A DNA stretch of 64,000 nt from Isosphaera pallida ATCC 43644. GTDB lineage: Bacteria; Planctomycetota; Planctomycetia; Isosphaerales; Isosphaeraceae. Position numbers and translations under genes: made by a program. Below the pieces are notes generated by a model. The model worked only from the letters and a program-made list of their open reading frames with translations. It was not told where the DNA came from and ran no database searches. The stretch is from assembly GCF_000186345.1 (NCBI RefSeq), contig NC_014962.1:1-64000 (forward strand), read 5' to 3'. Shown here piece by piece: positions 3,693-26,134 of this stretch; within the stretch, counting starts at the first letter, position 1; every line of letters starts with the position of its first letter.

Positions 3693-3868
3693 GAATCGAT
3701 TGATAAATCGCCCACGAGCCTTGGGTGTTGGGACGCTCACGGGGAGTGAGCGTTGCGTCTTTCTTGGGTGGGCAATGACGAACCGGGCGGCTTCGGTTGG
3801 CGATGGGTTTGGGGGCGGCGTGTTGGTTGGCTCAACGTCGTTGTCGTTGATCGCCGCCAATCAAGGTT

Positions 3869-5296
3869 TTAGACGATCGACGATGGCCGGCAGTAGGTCA
3901 ACCCCCCTTGCGGAAAAACCCGCACGCGGACGCCGCCGCGGACGGCCGAGCGGAAGTGGGATCCGGCCTGATCGAGATGGACCTCGACCGCGTTCCAGAG
4001 TGCCTCCAGGTTGTCGAAGAGCCGCACCGGTCCCAAGTGGGGGCCGACCACCTGGTGGAGCAAAGGACAGTACACAAAGACCGCGCGATCGACCACCAGT
4101 TCCCGCGCCCAGTGGATCATGAAGGCGGGGCGGAGTTTCCAGATGGAGGCGAGTCGATCGGCTAGTCCCAGACCGTGGCGGATCAGCCAAGCAGCGGGTC
4201 GTCCTCCCCGCCCCAGGCGTCGCAAGCTGCGGCGATCCAACGAGCGGTCTAGTTCGTCGGGACTGGCCCAGAAGAGGCCAACCAGCGCGCCTCCAGGGCG
4301 GCAGGCAGCGCGATGGTGGATCAACGCCTTGAAGCTCTGCAACGGGTCGCCGGGCCAGGGGGAGTTGCCCACCACGACCACTTCAGCAGGGGGACGAAAG
4401 GGGGCTTGGAACCGTCGTCGAGCCTCGTGGGCCAAACGCCGCTGCACCTCGTCGGGGCAGCCGGCCTCGACGCGGAGAATCTGGCCGGGCACGCCCAACA
4501 CATGACCAATCGAAAAGGTTTTGCCCGGAAGCAAAGTCATCGCCCGGGTGATCGCTTGGCGCATCGGGTTGAGGTCAGGGTCGCCTCCTAGCAGGGTCTC
4601 GGGGTGATCCTCGGGGCGAATCCCCCGGCGATGGACCGCCGCCAGGCTGGAGCGGTGGGCGCAACCGGGCAAAATCAGCTTCCAACCCCCGCCGAAACCG
4701 GCCTGAAGGTGCGGCAGGGTGGATCCGATCAACACCCGCAAATCCGCTTGGACCACCGGACGGAAAAGCCGCACCGGCAAGTCCTGGTCGATGGTTCCTA
4801 GGTCGTCGTAGGCCGTTGGGTCGTCCACCGGGGGACTCCACCATCTCAGGCGATCGGTTAACTCCGCGCCGAGACGCCGAACCATTGCCTCGCGGTCCAC
4901 CGGACGGTGACGGCCCACCGCCACCACCAAGTCGATCGAGTCGTCGCCCACCCCGGCCCGCTCCAGACGTTCCAGAACCACTGGCAAGGCGCGTTCTACC
5001 GGGGTCCAGCGCGACGGGTCGTCGATCACCAACGCCACCCGACCCAACGGCGTGGTGGCCAGGGTCTCGCTCCAGCCCGAGGCCGGATCGTCCAAAAGAC
5101 GGCCCAGCCGCGCTTCGTACTCCTCACTCGCCAATGCGTCGTCCAGAAGGGGTTGGGTGACGTCGATCAGACGCCACGATTCAGGCATCCGCAAGGCCAA
5201 CCGCTCACCCGGTCCCCAGGGGATCAAGACCTCCGGGAATCCCGGTCGGGGCCAAACGTCGGACGAGCCTGGCGGCGTGGAGCAACTCATGGACAT
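3869..5296 (-). CDS. LarA-type (nickel-dependent) racemase family protein, DUF2088
   Basis: A 475-residue member of the lactate racemase LarA family (N-terminal DUF2088), cytoplasmic. LarA enzymes isomerise 2-hydroxy acids using a covalently bound nickel-pincer nucleotide. Key residues are present at the expected spacing: His130 in VGRHRP, His196 in TLPHLQAGFGGG, Lys206 in GGGWKLILPG and His222 in AVHRRG. These match the catalytic His108/His174, cofactor-binding Lys184 and nickel-ligand His200 of Lactobacillus LarA with a constant offset of 22. DDPSRWTP near 92-99 matches the family DDxTRPTP motif. ATG 5296 or 5290 could be the start. No larB, larC or larE cofactor genes are in the window. 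The substrate could be another hydroxy acid, since the family is diverse. Confidence 0.8.
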   Translation of the reverse strand: MSMSCSTPPGSSDVWPRPGFPEVLIPWGPGERLALRMPESWRLIDVTQPLLDDALASEEYEARLGRLLDDPASGWSETLATTPLGRVALVIDDPSRWTPVERALPVVLERLERAGVGDDSIDLVVAVGRHRPVDREAMVRRLGAELTDRLRWWSPPVDDPTAYDDLGTIDQDLPVRLFRPVVQADLRVLIGSTLPHLQAGFGGGWKLILPGCAHRSSLAAVHRRGIRPEDHPETLLGGDPDLNPMRQAITRAMTLLPGKTFSIGHVLGVPGQILRVEAGCPDEVQRRLAHEARRRFQAPFRPPAEVVVVGNSPWPGDPLQSFKALIHHRAACRPGGALVGLFWASPDELDRSLDRRSLRRLGRGGRPAAWLIRHGLGLADRLASIWKLRPAFMIHWARELVVDRAVFVYCPLLHQVVGPHLGPVRLFDNLEALWNAVEVHLDQAGSHFRSAVRGGVRVRVFPQGGLTYCRPSSIV

Positions 5297-5657
5297 CGTG
5301 CGATCCGCGGCGCGTCGGCCTCAGCCGACGCGAGAGAGGACATACTTCCGGGCGTCACCATAATGTCCCCCACACGTCTTGCCAAGGGAGCCTCGAAGTC
5401 GGAGAACCCCGGATCGGTCCTTCCCCAACCCCTCGGCGACAAACCCACGCCAAGTGGTTAAACTCTCGGTGGAACGCGGACGGCGCAGCGGCGCGATTGT
5501 GCGTGATCGTCACGGCGGTGATTCCAGGCGAGATCAGACAAAACCTGCAACTCGCGGTCGTTTTCGCCGAGTCCCCAATGTGTTCCACCCAACAGCGAAC
5601 AGGCCGACTACGGCGTGTTGTCGGAACCTGGTCTCATTTGCGATCGAGTGACCCGCC
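5297..5657. other. Non-coding gap between the divergent LarA-like and Nudix genes
   Basis: About 360 bases. Short open frames on both strands show no family-like sequence. It should contain the promoters of both divergent genes, but I see no convincing -35/-10 pair. Confidence 0.5.
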
Positions 5658-6110
5658 ATGCGCGATCCGATCCCAACCTGGTATTTCGTTTTAGTGGTGG
5701 TGAGGCGGGGCGATCAGTTTCTCGTTGTCCAGGAACGTAAACATGATCAAACCTGGTATTTACCCGCAGGTCGGGTCGAACCAGGCGAGACGCTGGCCGA
5801 GGCGGCTGTGCGCGAGACCAGGGAAGAGTCGGGGGTGGAGATTGAACTGGAGGGGCTGTTGGCGATCGACCACACCCCCTCTTTGTGGGGCGGCAGCCGG
5901 TTGCGGGTGATCTATCTGGCCCGGCCCAAGGATGATCGTCCGCCCAAGGCGGTTCCAGACCAGCACAGCCTGAGAGCCCGCTGGGTGAATCTGGAGGAGT
6001 TGGATGGACTGCCGTTGCGCAGCGATGAGGTCAAGGTCTGGTTCCAGTGGGTTGCCGGCGGTGGCCCGGTCCATTCCCTGGAGTTGATCCGCTCGGAAGG
6101 TCTCGTCTGA
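5658..6110 (+). CDS. Nudix hydrolase
   Basis: A 150-residue cytoplasmic pyrophosphohydrolase of the Nudix family, which cleaves nucleoside diphosphates linked to another moiety. The Nudix box is perfect (G38, E44, R52-E53, E56-E57, G59, V60; GX5EX7REUXEEXGU). The segment before it, FLVVQERKHDQTWYLPAG, is typical of MutT/ADP-ribose-type members. The size is normal for a single-domain protein. It stands alone between a divergent gene and carB. No SD is obvious before ATG 5658. Substrate unknown. Confidence 0.9.
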   Translation: MRDPIPTWYFVLVVVRRGDQFLVVQERKHDQTWYLPAGRVEPGETLAEAAVRETREESGVEIELEGLLAIDHTPSLWGGSRLRVIYLARPKDDRPPKAVPDQHSLRARWVNLEELDGLPLRSDEVKVWFQWVAGGGPVHSLELIRSEGLV

Positions 6111-6512
6111 GTGGAACGCCCCCCCGATCCCGGACGCGGACCTAACGAGCCGGGCAGAGCCGGTTCCTACGGCGATCTTGTTCGACTCCCCCCTTGCCGG
6201 GTAAGATGTCGCCACTTCGCGCGGCGGTCGGAACCAAAGTCGATCGGTCTTCCCGGGTGTCTTGACGCGACCGCGACGCGAGCGGACGAGGCGGCGACGG
6301 CGAGGTTGGCGAGCTCGGTCCCAACCCCACGCGGCTCATGGCGGGCCGTTGGCCGCGAACGGCGTCGCGGCGTGAAACAGAATGTTCTGATGATTTGTAA
6401 TGAGGTTGGGCTCAACTCGACGATCATCCGCTCCGCGTCCACTTGAGTTGGGCGTCGGGTCGGGTTCCAACCGATCGAGGCAGCCCTTCGCACCGTCCCG
6501 AGGTTCTTCGCC
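6111..6512. other. Leader region upstream of carB
   Basis: About 400 bases without a credible gene. It contains a perfect small palindrome CAGAA-TG-TTCTG at 6378-6389, followed by TGTAAT (6396-6401), a possible -10 for carB with only a weak -35 (TGAAAC at 6373-6378). No pyrimidine-binding attenuator structure was recognised. Confidence 0.35.
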
Positions 6513-9764
<3,252 letters not shown>

Positions 9765-22105: not shown

Positions 22106-22333
22106 TCAGGGGGTGGTCTTGAACTCGTAGCCGGACCAATAGAAAATGAGCAACGCGCAACCAATGGTCATGGCGGCCATCGAGATGCCCAGAAGCGCGG
22201 TGTAGATATCGCTTTGAGCCTGGGGAACGCCAACCTTGCGGGTCTGGGCAGCGGGTTGAGCGCGTCGGGAAGAAGCGCCCCTCACCGCGCCGCGGGCGGG
22301 CTTAGAAGCCCCTTGGGAGCGTGGCCGAGACAA
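22106..22333 (-). CDS. Small single-pass membrane protein
   Basis: A 75-residue basic protein with one C-terminal membrane helix (IYTALLGISMAAMTIGCALLIFYW) and a short tail; the first 40 residues are Arg/Ala/Ser-rich. No family recognised. The start is an unusual TTG at 22333, supported by a full AGGAGG six bases upstream that lies inside the end of the preceding coiled-coil gene; the two genes overlap by 32 bases. This places it as the last gene of a three-gene membrane operon. A GTG about 50 bases further in is an alternative start. Confidence 0.72.
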   Translation of the reverse strand: MSRPRSQGASKPARGAVRGASSRRAQPAAQTRKVGVPQAQSDIYTALLGISMAAMTIGCALLIFYWSGYEFKTTP

Positions 22334-23156
22334 TGTCGCCCTCCTGCAGGAGTTTGCCCTGATAGGTTTTGCCTACGACCACCGCCGCCGATCGGTCGGG
22401 GTCGGTTTCGACGATCCGAATCTTCCCGAGGAACTCGGGAGGAGACGTGCGATAAACAAACAGCTCGTGGTCGGGGACCAGACCGACATCTGATCCGATC
22501 GAAATTTCAAGACGCTTATTCGAGGAATCGACCCGCAGGACGATACCCTCCACCTTGGGCGGGGCCGACACGCCGCGAATGGTGGCGATGTCGTCGTTGA
22601 AGCCTTTGGAGCGCATCCAGGCAGCGTAGGCAGCGTTGTCCTCGCGGAGGGTAGCATTCTGCGCCTTGGCGGTCGCCAATTCACGTGTCAGTTCGGCAAT
22701 CTTGGCGTTGAGATTAGTTTGCTCGATTTTCAAGGCGTTGGCGTCGTCCTGCGACTTCTTGAGATTGACCGAAAGCACCTCCATCTCTCGCAGGCGGAAC
22801 GCGGCCTCACTCTGGGCGGCTTCAAGCGCGCGATTCACCACTTCAAGTTCCGTGCGAGCCGCTTTCCGATCGTCCTCGATGGCAGTGATAGTGTTGCCAA
22901 TCGTTTCGAGCTGCTCCTTGAGTTTTTGGACCTCTTGAGCGAGATTAACTCGATCCGATTCTGCGTTGGAAAGGTCTTGGGTGAGGCGATCCCGCTCAGC
23001 GCGAATAGCGGCGAGGTCGCGGTTGAATTGGTCCCGCTGCTTGGTCAGCTCGACACGATGGTTCTTGGCGGTCGCAAAGACGACGGAAGCCAAGCTCGCG
23101 AACAAAATCGAGAAGACCAAGATCACCAGGACGAGGATTTTCCCGACAAAGTTCAT
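22302..23156 (-). CDS. Membrane-anchored coiled-coil protein
   Basis: A 284-residue protein with an N-terminal membrane anchor (FVGKILVLVILVFSILFASL), then an uninterrupted coiled coil from about residue 32 to 185, and a small globular C-terminal domain (VEGIVLRVDSSNKRLEISIG, then VPDHELFVYRTSP). The C-terminal part looks like an OB/SH3-type beta barrel, similar in layout to MreC-like and septum-associated proteins, but it is not MreC. Function unknown; a role as an envelope or division scaffold is inference. It follows a gene with the same anchor-plus-coil plan and overlaps the small membrane protein gene. Confidence 0.78.
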   Translation of the reverse strand: MNFVGKILVLVILVFSILFASLASVVFATAKNHRVELTKQRDQFNRDLAAIRAERDRLTQDLSNAESDRVNLAQEVQKLKEQLETIGNTITAIEDDRKAARTELEVVNRALEAAQSEAAFRLREMEVLSVNLKKSQDDANALKIEQTNLNAKIAELTRELATAKAQNATLREDNAAYAAWMRSKGFNDDIATIRGVSAPPKVEGIVLRVDSSNKRLEISIGSDVGLVPDHELFVYRTSPPEFLGKIRIVETDPDRSAAVVVGKTYQGKLLQEGDIVSATLPRGF

Positions 23157-23305
23157 AGCCGGCTCCCGAGAAACTCATCAATACGAAACGGGAAGGAAAT
23201 CATCCTCAATCCAACGATACAACAAATTGGATCGGGTAAGAATCCACGAACCATCGAATCCGAACAATCCAACCATCGAACCCCAAGACCTGGCCACGAG
23301 TGAGT

Positions 23306-23869
23306 TCATTCATTCACGGCGGTCACAACAGAGCCCGACGCGGAAGAGAGGCGTCTGAGGTCAGCCTCGTTCTTCGAGACAACTTCAACCTGACGGCGAA
23401 GGTTGACGATCCGATCATTGAGTAGTTGATTTTGCTGGTCATACTCGCGGGTCTGGAGGCGAATAGCACGCAGGTTGTCGATAGCATCATCGACCTGGTT
23501 GGCGGTCTCGCGGGTTTGCTCCAGCAGTTCGTTGGTGCGCACACGGACCTCGGCCAACGACTTGCGGGCGGATTCGATGTCGCGGGACACCTTGGTGGCG
23601 TCGGTGTCGAGTTGTTTGATTTGGGTTTCGTAGGCGGTTTGAAGATCGGCCAACTTCTTTTTGGCTTGCTCAGCGCGGGCGTTTTGGAACAGGGTGCGTT
23701 CTTCGTATTTCACTTTCTCTTGGCGCAATTCGTTGATCGACTTGTTGACTTCGGCGATGCGGGCATCCCACTTGGAGGGGATGGCGACCACGGCGATGGC
23801 CAATCCGAGGAGATACAGGCTCAGGGTGGTGATCAAGACCACGAACACTTTTCCGAGTTTGGTCGTCAT
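23306..23869 (-). CDS. Membrane-anchored coiled-coil protein, paralogue of the next gene
   Basis: A 187-residue protein: anchor KLGKVFVVLITTLSLYLLGL at the N-terminus, then coiled coil from about residue 35 to the end, with no globular domain. The anchor (GK-V-V-I-S pattern) matches that of the 22302-23156 product, which suggests common descent. ATG 23869 was chosen because it starts at the anchor; the open frame runs on upstream without coding character. Between the two genes are 149 AT-rich bases with the 10-bp word AACCATCGAA repeated at 23249 and 23271. Confidence 0.75.
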   Translation of the reverse strand: MTTKLGKVFVVLITTLSLYLLGLAIAVVAIPSKWDARIAEVNKSINELRQEKVKYEERTLFQNARAEQAKKKLADLQTAYETQIKQLDTDATKVSRDIESARKSLAEVRVRTNELLEQTRETANQVDDAIDNLRAIRLQTREYDQQNQLLNDRIVNLRRQVEVVSKNEADLRRLSSASGSVVTAVNE

Positions 23870-24339: not shown

Positions 24340-25377
24340 TCAGGCGTGGGGCCGGGTGGCTTCGAGCCACTTTTCGCAGTCGATGGCGGCCATGCAACCC
24401 ATTCCGGCGGCGGTGACAGCTTGGCGGTAGTGGGTGTCCACCACGTCGCCGGCGGCGAAGACCCCTTCGACACTGGTGGCGGTGCCGTAGTTGGGCATCG
24501 AGTCGAGCAGACCGGCGGGGGCTTCCACTCCTTTCCAGCACAAGGCCAGGCGGTTGAGCAGGTAGCCCTCGGGGGTCATTGCCACTTGGCCTTGGTAGAT
24601 GTCGGTGTTGGGGCTGTGACCGATCGCCAGGAACAGGCCGTCGAGTTCCAAAGTCACGTCGGGCTCGCCGGTGGTCGAAGCCAGCCGGACGGCCTTGAGT
24701 TGGGCTTCGGGTTCGTGGTCGCCCAGGTACTCGGCGACGGTGCGGTTCCAAAGCGGCTCGATCTTGGGGTTGGTCAGCAAACGTTGTTGCATGATTTTGC
24801 TGGCGCGGAGCTCGTGACGGCGGTGGATCAAAAACACCTTGGAGGCGAAGCGGGTTAGGAAGGTGGCTTCCTCCACAGCGGTGTCGCCGCCGCCGACCAC
24901 GCCGACGACCTTGCCTCGGTACAGCGCCCCGTCGCAGGTGGCGCAGGTGGAAAGCCCATGACCCATGAACGTCATCTCATGGGGTAGATCTAACAGGCGG
25001 GCGTCGGCACCCCCAGCGATGATGAGGCCGTCGCAGGTGTATTCGACCGACTCGCGCTTCTCCAGGTCTGGCTTGGCAACCAGGTGAAATGGACGACGCG
25101 AAAGGTCGATCTTGACCACATTGTCGTGGTGGAAGCGGGCTCCGAATCGCTCGGCCTGGCGACGCATCAACTCGATGAGTTCGGGACCTTGGACCCCCTG
25201 GGGGAATCCTGGATAGTTTTCCACGTCGGTGGTCCACATCAATTGACCGCCGGGCACCCGGCCGCGGGGCTTGAAGCCGTCCAGCACGATCGGGGAGAGG
25301 TTAGCGCGGGCGGTGTACAGCGCGGAGGTCAGTCCCGCGCAACCCGCGCCGATGATGATGACGGACGAGTGGGGCAT
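24340..25377 (-). CDS. trxB: Thioredoxin reductase
   Basis: Transfers electrons from NADPH through FAD and a redox disulfide to thioredoxin. The 345-residue product begins VIIIGAGCAGLTSALYTARA (FAD site), has the redox pair Cys145-Cys148 in STCATCDG, an NADPH-binding GVVGGGDTAVEEA, and the C-terminal FAD contact GVFAAGDVVD followed by YRQAVTAAGMGCMAA. Length is close to the usual 310-340. ATG 25377 coincides with the conserved N-terminus; the frame extends upstream to 25785 without similarity. It is divergent from csrA. Confidence 0.95.
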   Translation of the reverse strand: MPHSSVIIIGAGCAGLTSALYTARANLSPIVLDGFKPRGRVPGGQLMWTTDVENYPGFPQGVQGPELIELMRRQAERFGARFHHDNVVKIDLSRRPFHLVAKPDLEKRESVEYTCDGLIIAGGADARLLDLPHEMTFMGHGLSTCATCDGALYRGKVVGVVGGGDTAVEEATFLTRFASKVFLIHRRHELRASKIMQQRLLTNPKIEPLWNRTVAEYLGDHEPEAQLKAVRLASTTGEPDVTLELDGLFLAIGHSPNTDIYQGQVAMTPEGYLLNRLALCWKGVEAPAGLLDSMPNYGTATSVEGVFAAGDVVDTHYRQAVTAAGMGCMAAIDCEKWLEATRPHA

Positions 25378-25861
25378 CGTCGGGATTCCGTTGAAGCGAG
25401 CCGGGTTCAGGGCAGTGGGATTAAGTATGGCACAGACCCTCGGTTTCTCCAAGGGGCGCGTTGTGAACCCGCGTCGGCCCCAACGCCAACGCGGTGGCAA
25501 TTGGTCGCGGTGTCCAGGCGTGGGGACCGACTGGTGGGTGATGGTCCGTCGTGGGCGCGGGTCATGTTCTATGCTTCGATCGCCGGGTGGAACGCCTTGG
25601 GGCGTGTCAACCAACGCGGGGGTTTGGGGCTGGACCAAGCCGGATGGGAGATCAGGATCGCCGTCGGAACCGATGATCCGTGGGCCGAGGCGCGGCGGGC
25701 AACCGATCGCGCGACCTTCTCGGCGATCCATTCCGATCCGAGCCGCTCCGCTCCGCTTTGCCGCGATCCGCGTGACCACCTCCACGTCAGACCGGCCCGG
25801 CTCTCTGGTTCGAGGATGCGACCCAACCGAGTCATGGAACGGAACAAGGGGGGCGGCCCGT
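25378..25861. other. Divergent gap between trxB and csrA
   Basis: About 480 bases. Overlapping frames on both strands are extensions of trxB and csrA frames and carry no recognisable domain. Both promoters must lie here. Confidence 0.4.
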
Positions 25862-26134
25862 ATGCTGGTTCTCAGCCGAAAGCTGATGGAGAAGGTGTAT
25901 ATCGGCGACGATATCTGCGTGACCGTCGTGCGCCTGGAGAACGGTCAAGTCCGATTGGGGATCGACGCCCCCCGACACATTCCTGTGGTTCGCGCCGAGT
26001 TGCAGGACCAGACACGGAACCGGCGTGGGGGAACGCCCGCGCGTGCCTCGGCTCACCCCACTTCTTCTCACCCTCACTCTCACCATCACACACCGCCCCA
26101 GGGTTTGAAGACCGCCTCCACTTCATCTCGCTGA
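25862..26134 (+). CDS. csrA: Carbon storage regulator CsrA with His-rich tail
   Basis: A small RNA-binding protein that controls translation by binding GGA motifs near ribosome binding sites. Residues 1-49 are a complete CsrA fold: MLVLSRKLMEKVYIGDDICV, LGIDAPRHIPVVRAEL, with Leu4 and Arg44 equivalents (the Arg of VVRAEL) that contact RNA. The protein is 90 residues instead of the usual 60-70: the extra tail has a basic QTRNRRGG, a Ser/His block (SSHPHSHHH) and ends in TASTSSR. SD-like GGGGGG lies 8 bases before ATG 25862 and contains potential CsrA-type contact near the start. No fliW or flagellar genes are adjacent. Confidence 0.9.
   Translation: MLVLSRKLMEKVYIGDDICVTVVRLENGQVRLGIDAPRHIPVVRAELQDQTRNRRGGTPARASAHPTSSHPHSHHHTPPQGLKTASTSSR

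What the first reader, a model, noticed from the sequence alone, without database searches (positions are those of the whole stretch)
22106..23869. Operon of two paralogous membrane-anchored coiled-coil proteins and a small membrane protein
Both larger proteins start with a similar GK-rich membrane anchor and continue as coiled coil; only one ends in a beta-rich domain. The third product is a 75-residue single-pass protein. Planctomycetes lack FtsZ and have unusual envelopes, so an envelope or division scaffold is a reasonable hypothesis.
Basis: partly seen in the sequence, partly recalled or inferred. Interest (0 to 1): 0.5.

Follow-up and report, generated by a model that had tools for sequence, protein, structure and literature searches.

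The report
Periplasmic strut left from cell-shape operon
Two of these three genes belong to a pair of membrane proteins found in most planctomycete genomes searched, usually sitting in front of the cell-shape genes mreB and mreC, and this bacterium has kept the pair although no mreB, mreC or wall-precursor gene murG could be detected in it, which makes the pair a good lead on how such planctomycetes hold their shape.

Summary
In detail: three minus-strand genes encode an anchor plus coiled coil (P0001, 187 aa), an anchor, coiled coil and beta-barrel (P0002, 284 aa), and a single-pass protein (P0003, 75 aa) overlapping P0002 by 32 nt. The P0001 and P0002 anchors are homologous (0 of 10,000 shuffles score as high).

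P0002 matches in 174 of 196 Planctomycetota genomes and, with the profile, 38 of 40 relatives. Outside class Planctomycetia, MreC lies 1.6-3.1 kb downstream on the same strand in 60 of 68 genomes with both listed hits on one contig. The common order is lnt - P0002 - P0003 - mreB - mreC. A small one-pass ORF fills the P0003 slot in 38 of 38 regions where P0002 and mreB are neighbours. Of 80 named loci, 4 keep mreB and mreC, 8 mreB only. Isosphaera keeps P0002-P0003 without detectable MreB, MreC or MurG.

Best reading: P0002 is a fixed-length, MreC-like periplasmic strut, first part of the elongation machinery, now working without it; P0001 is a headless paralogue found in few relatives. Function is inferred. 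No genome of 196 has FtsZ over cut-off, so a tie to FtsZ loss is untestable by profile.

The parts
22302..23156 (-). P0002: 284-aa membrane-anchored coiled-coil protein with C-terminal beta-barrel; core of the conserved pair
23073..23144 (-). P0002 signal anchor (about residues 5-28, GK motif at 5-6)
   Evidence: sequence; G5 invariant and K6 nearly invariant in 30 orthologues; membrane crossing inferred from hydrophobicity
22608..23069 (-). P0002 single long helix, residues 30-183, about 23 nm if straight
   Evidence: model; spacing residue 33 to G204 is 175.8 +/- 4.4 residues in 70 sequences
22320..22556 (-). P0002 C-terminal beta-barrel, residues 201-279 (GSDxG and GD motifs)
   Evidence: model, fold matches, FlgT_C hits in 3 of 30 and 6 of 25 family members
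22106..22333 (-). P0003: 75-aa single-pass protein, basic N-terminal tail, TTG start
22136..22198 (-). P0003 transmembrane segment (about residues 46-66)
   Evidence: read from the sequence and the aligned family
22302..22333 (-). 32-nt overlap of the P0002 end and the P0003 start; same 32 nt in 18 of 29 loci scored
23306..23869 (-). P0001: 187-aa headless paralogue (anchor plus one helix 34-186, no barrel)

Best explanation
P0002 and P0003 are the remnant of a planctomycete cell-shape operon, lnt - P0002 - P0003 - mreB - mreC (mreD follows in the one locus where it was checked). P0002 works like a second, longer MreC: a signal anchor holds it in the inner membrane, a coiled coil of conserved length (about 23 nm) crosses the periplasm, and the terminal beta-barrel docks on a partner at the wall or outer membrane. 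P0003, probably made by coupled translation, puts a short tail on the cytoplasmic side and may link P0002 to MreB where MreB exists. In Isosphaera, where MreB, MreC and MurG are not detectable, the pair persists as an inner-membrane-to-outer-envelope spacer or tether that does not need them. P0001, with the same anchor and helix length but no head, may pair with P0002 and tune it. Shown: gene order, distribution, paralogy, length conservation, predicted folds. Inferred: topology, oligomer, docking partner, coupling, P0003-MreB contact, spacer role, direction of change.
For: Linkage: in the (capped) listings, 96 genomes outside the class carry both a P0002 and an MreC hit, 68 on one contig, and in 60 of 68 MreC is 1.6-3.1 kb downstream on the same strand. 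In 40 fetched regions (all but three chosen for that proximity) 37 show P0002-mreB-mreC colinear and one more P0002-mreB at a contig end. A small one-pass ORF lies between P0002 and mreB in 38 of 38 such regions, 0.9 expected from shuffles. Pfam confirms LNT_N, MreB_Mbl, MreC and MreD in L153. lnt within 2 kb upstream on the same strand in 41 of 77 loci, within 2.5 kb in 45 of 80 named loci. Erosion series in the 80 named loci: L232, L233, L271, L273 have mreB and mreC downstream; eight have mreB only (seven with room for mreC in the DNA held); 68 have no mreB, 62 of them with at least 1 kb of DNA behind P0002. Own genome: no MreC at E<=0.001, MreB-profile hits weak and below cut-off (best 64.7 bits in a 637-aa frame), no MurG at E<=0.001; PMC5352709 passages state MreB is missing in four Isosphaeraceae; PMC12283558 passages state loss of murA, C, D, F, G, J and ftsW in Isosphaerales. 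MreC-like build: top Foldseek match by E-value is MreC 2j5u, 6.6e-4; barrel profile against MreC P 1.5e-4, versus 0.58 for MreB and Lnt, 0.067 for reversed and at least 0.094 for 40 shuffled MreC profiles; the MreC profile hits one P0002 orthologue at 2.3e-8 (database size set to 1,000) across the coil-barrel junction.
Against: No interaction, localisation or deletion data. Class genomes with MreC (f2) have P0002 far from it in 7 of 7 with both on one contig. PF04085 does not match P0002 in the own genome. The Foldseek MreC alignment is poor as a superposition (rmsd 12.5 A over 115 columns, TM 0.17/0.22); FlgT-type and F1-ATPase barrels superpose well and MreC is not in the rows shown by the second aligner; the barrel-only HMM finds one genuine MreC, at 0.0023. 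mreB and mreC are non-essential in Planctopirus limnophila (passages). Four of four f44 regions have lnt-mreB-mreC without the pair, so the pair is not required for Mre function there. Both models have low pTM. The wall-independent role rests on gene loss alone, and some peptidoglycan genes (murB, murE, mraY) remain in Isosphaeraceae (passage).
Confidence: 0.5

Rival explanations
1. Division scaffold: the three proteins form part of the FtsZ-independent division machinery, with P0002 and P0001 as a heteromeric coiled-coil ring or hub.
For: Widespread in a phylum without canonical FtsZ (0 of 196 over cut-off; P0002 in 174 of 196); kept where no MreB is detectable.
Against: Operon partners are elongation genes; no P0002 match in eight listed f44 genomes, which have no FtsZ match either; P0001-like genes detected in few genomes.
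Confidence: 0.15
2. Lipoprotein-pathway helper: P0002-P0003 assist Lnt or lipoprotein transfer to the outer membrane, and the Mre link is incidental.
For: lnt lies upstream within 2 kb in 41 of 77 loci and within 2.5 kb in 45 of 80, also in many Isosphaeraceae loci that have no mreB.
Against: In four of four f44 regions lnt and mreB are neighbours without the pair; in Isosphaera itself lnt is not in the 64-kb window (the rest of the genome was not searched for it); no lipoprotein-handling domain appears in the family lists shown.
Confidence: 0.15
3. P0002 is a true member of the MreC family, that is, a diverged duplicate of mreC kept in the same operon. (This concerns descent and does not exclude the best explanation.)
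For: Same order of anchor, coil and barrel; best Foldseek E-value is MreC; barrel profile P 1.5e-4 above its controls; weak HMM hits in both directions.
Against: One barrel of about 80 residues against the 147-position MreC core; FlgT_C is the Pfam family hit by the most members of the phylum-wide set (6 of 25); the barrel-only HMM finds one genuine MreC, at E 0.0023; one HMM alignment looks out of register.
Confidence: 0.25
4. Generic coiled-coil envelope proteins whose neighbourhood with mreB is only inherited gene order, without functional link.
For: f2 genomes have the genes apart; sequence is poorly conserved (mean column identity 44% in A1; 33% in A4).
Against: Length and head are conserved in the 70 sequences compared, and gene order in 60 of 68.
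Confidence: 0.15

Closest known systems
MreC (PF04085), periplasmic rod-shape protein
   Same: Anchor, coiled coil, terminal beta domain; usually in the same gene neighbourhood outside the class; best Foldseek E-value is MreC 2j5u; weak but controlled profile similarity
   Different: About 154-residue helix and a single short barrel; PF04085 does not match it in the own genome; coexists with a genuine MreC in 96 listed genomes outside the class
FlgT C-terminal domain (PF16538)
   Same: Barrel hit by 3 of 30 (best 1e-4) and 6 of 25 (best 6.1e-5) family members; structural match Z 9.9 to 8z5n (LPHT ring chain, taken to be FlgT) and 9.0 to FlgT 3w1e
   Different: FlgT is a flagellar basal-body protein without this anchor and long coiled coil (recalled); flagellar genes near P0002 were not searched for
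N-terminal beta-barrel of F1/V1-ATPase subunits
   Same: Same kind of barrel, Z about 9
   Different: No ATPase domain, different architecture; a common fold only
MreB-MreC-MreD elongation operon
   Same: P0002-P0003 sit at its 5' side, often behind lnt
   Different: The pair reaches no curated cut-off in the family lists seen, and remains in Isosphaera where MreB and MreC are not detected

Membership tests
MreC | PF04085 barrel-core match | tested here: not met
   Own genome, which holds P0002, has no PF04085 match at E<=0.001
MreC | N-terminal anchor, coiled coil, C-terminal beta domain | tested here: met
   Model; one barrel only
MreC | Sequence homology of the barrel | tested here: inconclusive
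   hhalign P 1.5e-4, probability 51%, controls 0.067 and at least 0.094; barrel-only HMM weak
MreC | Gene next to mreB | tested here: met
   In 38 of 40 regions, most of them chosen for proximity, with a P0003-slot ORF between; not in the window, where no mreB is found
MreC | Binding to PBP2 or MreD | not testable with these tools
   no interaction data
FlgT_C | PF16538 match | tested here: inconclusive
   Best 6.1e-5; 6 of 25 phylum-wide members and 3 of 30 class members; not among the 25 of 30 families shown for the window protein
FlgT_C | Part of a flagellar basal-body protein | not tested
   A PMC5352709 passage says flagellar genes are poorly represented in four Isosphaeraceae
FtsZ-replacing division protein | Present where and only where FtsZ is absent | tested here: inconclusive
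   0 of 196 genomes over the FtsZ cut-off, so no contrast within the phylum; eight listed f44 genomes have neither
FtsZ-replacing division protein | Localises to the division site | not testable with these tools
   needs microscopy
P0002 family (this work) | P0001 shares the anchor and coil | tested here: met
P0002 family (this work) | P0001 carries the barrel | tested here: not met

The most novel reading that the evidence does not exclude
P0002-P0003 are the core of an envelope-spacing and shape system that arose inside the Mre operon and then took over from MreB and the classical wall pathway in Isosphaerales, Gemmatales and Pirellulales, so that these bacteria keep shape, and perhaps bud, by periplasm-spanning coiled-coil struts of fixed length instead of an actin-guided wall.
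Probability: 0.2. Interest if true: 0.88.

Novelty: new variant of a known kind. Interest (0 to 1): 0.62.

Why it matters
How planctomycetes without FtsZ, and in some orders without MreB and most wall-precursor enzymes, keep their shape and divide is a long-open question. This gives two widespread, uncharacterised proteins that are tied by gene order to the elongation machinery, yet retained where it is not detectable. They are short, P0002 gives one match in most of the relatives searched, and they can be tested in genetically tractable planctomycetes. The finding also recasts the anonymous genes in front of planctomycete mreB as likely elongation or envelope components.

Tried and rejected
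Coiled-coil hits to eukaryotic proteins, SMC, Rad50, myosin and crescentin were set aside as shared coiled-coil composition. No Rfam match at gathering level and no tRNA in the window. No match of P0002 in the plasmid collection. Promoter and terminator scans gave two matches each, near the shuffle means of 0.9 and 2.6. The phylogenetic profile against FtsZ proved uninformative. The 'HlyD-like adaptor' idea was dropped: a single straight helix, not a hairpin, joins anchor and barrel in the model. The gene tree of P0001 and other upstream paralogues places P0001 with those of one other Isosphaeraceae lineage (support 93/88), but long branches meet there, so one or several duplications cannot be told apart. 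In one search the 'mreC' label of L224 falls on the P0002 frame itself (the MreC profile cross-hits it) and was not counted; the frame after mreB in L280, L282 and L283 shows the P0002 label because one frame matched both profiles, and I read it as mreC from its place. The P0003 profile alone misses many P0003-slot genes (match in 49 of 196 genomes at E<=0.1, not all beside P0002); the slot was therefore tested by position and hydrophobicity. MreC did not appear among the 50 rows shown by VIA-align. My single-sequence search missed P0002 in three of four f3 genomes; the profile found it in all four, G039 only in pieces of one frame. A first profile comparison of the barrel with MreC, with another setting, gave P 2.8e-5 and probability 48%. 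I saw no paper on this pair beside mreB in the listings of six searches of the held library; the listed papers were not read except for passages of five; Jogler et al. 2012, the most relevant paper I know of, is not held, so prior mention there is possible. Presence outside Planctomycetota was not tested: the one genome-contig scan kept the best 80 of 251 relatives.

Full report
WHAT IS THERE. The three genes are at the stated coordinates, all on the minus strand. P0001 and P0002 are 149 nt apart; P0002 and P0003 overlap by 32 nt. The same 32-nt overlap occurs in 18 of 29 loci scored by a crude start rule, 15 of them with a TTG start, which suggests translational coupling.

STRUCTURE. AlphaFold2 with a 30-sequence alignment gives P0002 as one helix from residue 3 to 183 followed by a small six-stranded domain. 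P0001, with 7 sequences, is an anchor helix and one helix from 34 to 186 with nothing after it. At 0.15 nm per residue both helices would be about 23 nm long beyond the anchor. pTM is low in both (0.39 and 0.37), so relative placement of the parts is not known. P0002 length hardly varies: 285.1 +/- 4.0 residues in 40 sequences outside the class, and the stretch from residue 33 to G204 is 175.8 +/- 4.4 in 70 sequences, although identity to the first sequence is only 16-31% in the phylum-wide alignment. A conserved length in a poorly conserved coil is what a spacer would show; this is inference.

PARALOGY. The P0002 profile finds P0001 at 2.3e-20 in the own genome, far ahead of any other coiled coil (0.0019). 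The anchor alone also passes: 29.2 bits, 0 of 10,000 shuffles as high. P0001 is thus a headless paralogue. Similar upstream paralogues occur in G005 and G022 among Isosphaeraceae, in four f2 genomes and in 13 of 80 named loci. Tandem copies also occur in L153 and L162. The tree does not settle the number of duplications.

DISTRIBUTION. P0002 was found in 35 of 40 relatives by single sequence; with the profile the three missed f3 genomes are also positive (G039 in pieces), leaving only G010 and G018, 81% and 77% complete. Across the phylum, 174 of 196 genomes match at 1e-5 or better; this is a lower bound, because a broader profile finds the gene in regions of G065 and G146, which were listed as negative. 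Eight f44 genomes of 99-100% completeness are listed as negative.

THE MRE OPERON. MreC (PF04085) is over its cut-off in 170 of 196 phylum genomes. Matching the two capped listings, 107 genomes hold both hits, 96 of them outside the class; 68 of the 96 have both on one contig, and in 60 of those 68 MreC is 1.6-3.1 kb downstream on the same strand. HMM annotation of 40 regions, all but three picked because of this proximity, shows P0002-mreB-mreC in 37, P0002-mreB at a contig end in one (L186), and no such order in L185 and L187. In all 38 regions where P0002 and mreB are neighbours, a small ORF with one hydrophobic segment lies between them; shuffled regions would give 0.9. Pfam names the neighbours in L153: LNT_N, MreB_Mbl, MreC and MreD. 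lnt lies within 2 kb upstream of P0002 in 41 of 77 loci, some of which hold little upstream DNA. In four of four f44 regions and one f68 region (L285), lnt is followed by mreB and mreC; the gap of 61-204 nt holds neither P0002 nor any ORF of 30 codons or more. So the pair was either inserted there in other lineages or lost in these. In a second f68 region (L284) mreB-mreC is found without lnt or the pair.

EROSION. Within the class the operon is found in several stages. Of 80 named loci, P0003 was detected in 72, lnt upstream in 45, mreB downstream in 12, and mreC as well in 4 (L232, L233, L271, L273). Of the 68 without mreB, 62 have at least 1 kb of DNA behind P0002, enough to show it if it were there. 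In the 40 relatives MreB is over its cut-off only in the four f2 genomes; G028 keeps an MreB relative (263 bits) directly behind P0003 and G029 one (149 bits) about 2 kb away on the other strand. MreC is over the cut-off in the same four f2 genomes only. MurG is over the cut-off in three f2 genomes, below it in the fourth (231 against 250 bits), at 192 bits in G029, and over it in none of 25 Isosphaeraceae; the own genome has no hit at E<=0.001. Published passages agree: MreB is missing in four Isosphaeraceae including I. pallida (PMC5352709), and Isosphaerales, Pirellulales and Gemmatales lost murA, C, D, F, G, J and ftsW (PMC12283558). P0002-P0003 are still there. Passages of PMC5352709 also say that several genes for peptidoglycan synthesis (murB, murE, mraY) remain, so 'without peptidoglycan' is not shown. 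That the stages are losses rather than gains is inferred from the wide distribution of the full order outside the class.

WHAT THE BARREL IS. The best Foldseek E-value is MreC (2j5u, 6.6e-4), but with rmsd 12.5 A over 115 columns and TM 0.17/0.22; F1-ATPase barrels and FlgT (3w1e, 5.2e-3) follow. After realignment the LPHT-ring chain 8z5n (taken to be FlgT; Z 9.9, 75 residues, 2.1 A) and ATPase barrels (Z about 9) lead, and MreC is not in the rows shown. Pfam FlgT_C is hit by 3 of 30 and 6 of 25 family members. Profile comparison of the barrel with planctomycete MreC gives P 1.5e-4, against 0.58 for MreB and Lnt, 0.067 for reversed and at least 0.094 for 40 column-shuffled MreC profiles. The full MreC profile hits one P0002 at 2.3e-8 over the coil-barrel junction and two more at 3.7e-6 and 6.7e-6 with strong composition bias; one HMM alignment in the other direction looks out of register, and the barrel-only HMM finds just one genuine MreC, at 0.0023. 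So P0002 works like MreC in build and place, but membership in the MreC family is not established.

MECHANISM. Most likely, P0002 is a membrane-anchored strut whose coil crosses the periplasm and whose head docks on the wall or outer membrane, with P0003 as its inner-face partner. In MreB-bearing planctomycetes it would serve the elongation complex; in Isosphaera it would continue as an envelope spacer or tether. Gene order, distribution, paralogy, length conservation and folds are shown; topology, partners and the spacer role are inferred. The two chief functional rivals are a division scaffold and a lipoprotein-pathway helper.

NOVELTY. No curated family was found to cover either protein: the window's P0003 has no Pfam or NCBIfam match at E<=1, and of 26 P0003 family members one has a CD20 hit at 0.0056 in Pfam. 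In the lists shown for P0002 and its family (best 25 families each) there are coiled-coil hits, none over a curated cut-off in the rows that give one, and weak FlgT_C. The listings of six paper searches in the held library showed no paper on this pair beside mreB. I rate it a new variant of a known kind: an extra, MreC-like module of the Mre operon that outlived the operon. Five papers were seen as passages only (PMC10632474, PMC5147048, PMC12288469, PMC12283558, PMC5352709).

Noticed in passing
L153:8091-8606: MreD (PF04093, 3.8e-8) follows mreC, although a passage of PMC5147048 says MreD is found in no PVC proteome.
   Followed up: partly
L280, L281, L282, L283, L285: In four f44 regions and one f68 region lnt stands directly before mreB-mreC with no P0002 or P0003-slot gene between, which brackets a gain or loss of the pair.
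   Followed up: partly
L051 (G027), L055 (G031): Two further anchor-plus-helix frames precede P0002; the G027 contig has the genome length printed for Kolteria novifilia Pan216.
   Followed up: no
window 25271-26134 (+): This frame contains MLVLSRKLMEKVYIGDDI, which looks like a CsrA-type RNA-binding protein (family recalled, not searched).
   Followed up: no
L185 (G054) 3750-8369: A P0002-like match sits inside a frame of about 1,500 residues, possibly a fusion.
   Followed up: no
G135, G048, G106, G092, G213, G172, G119: Weak FtsZ/tubulin-type matches below the curated cut-off in 7 of 196 planctomycete genomes.
   Followed up: no
window 22302-22333: TTG-started P0003 overlaps the P0002 end by 32 nt; the same 32 nt in 18 of 29 loci scored (15 TTG, 2 ATG, 1 GTG).
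   Followed up: partly
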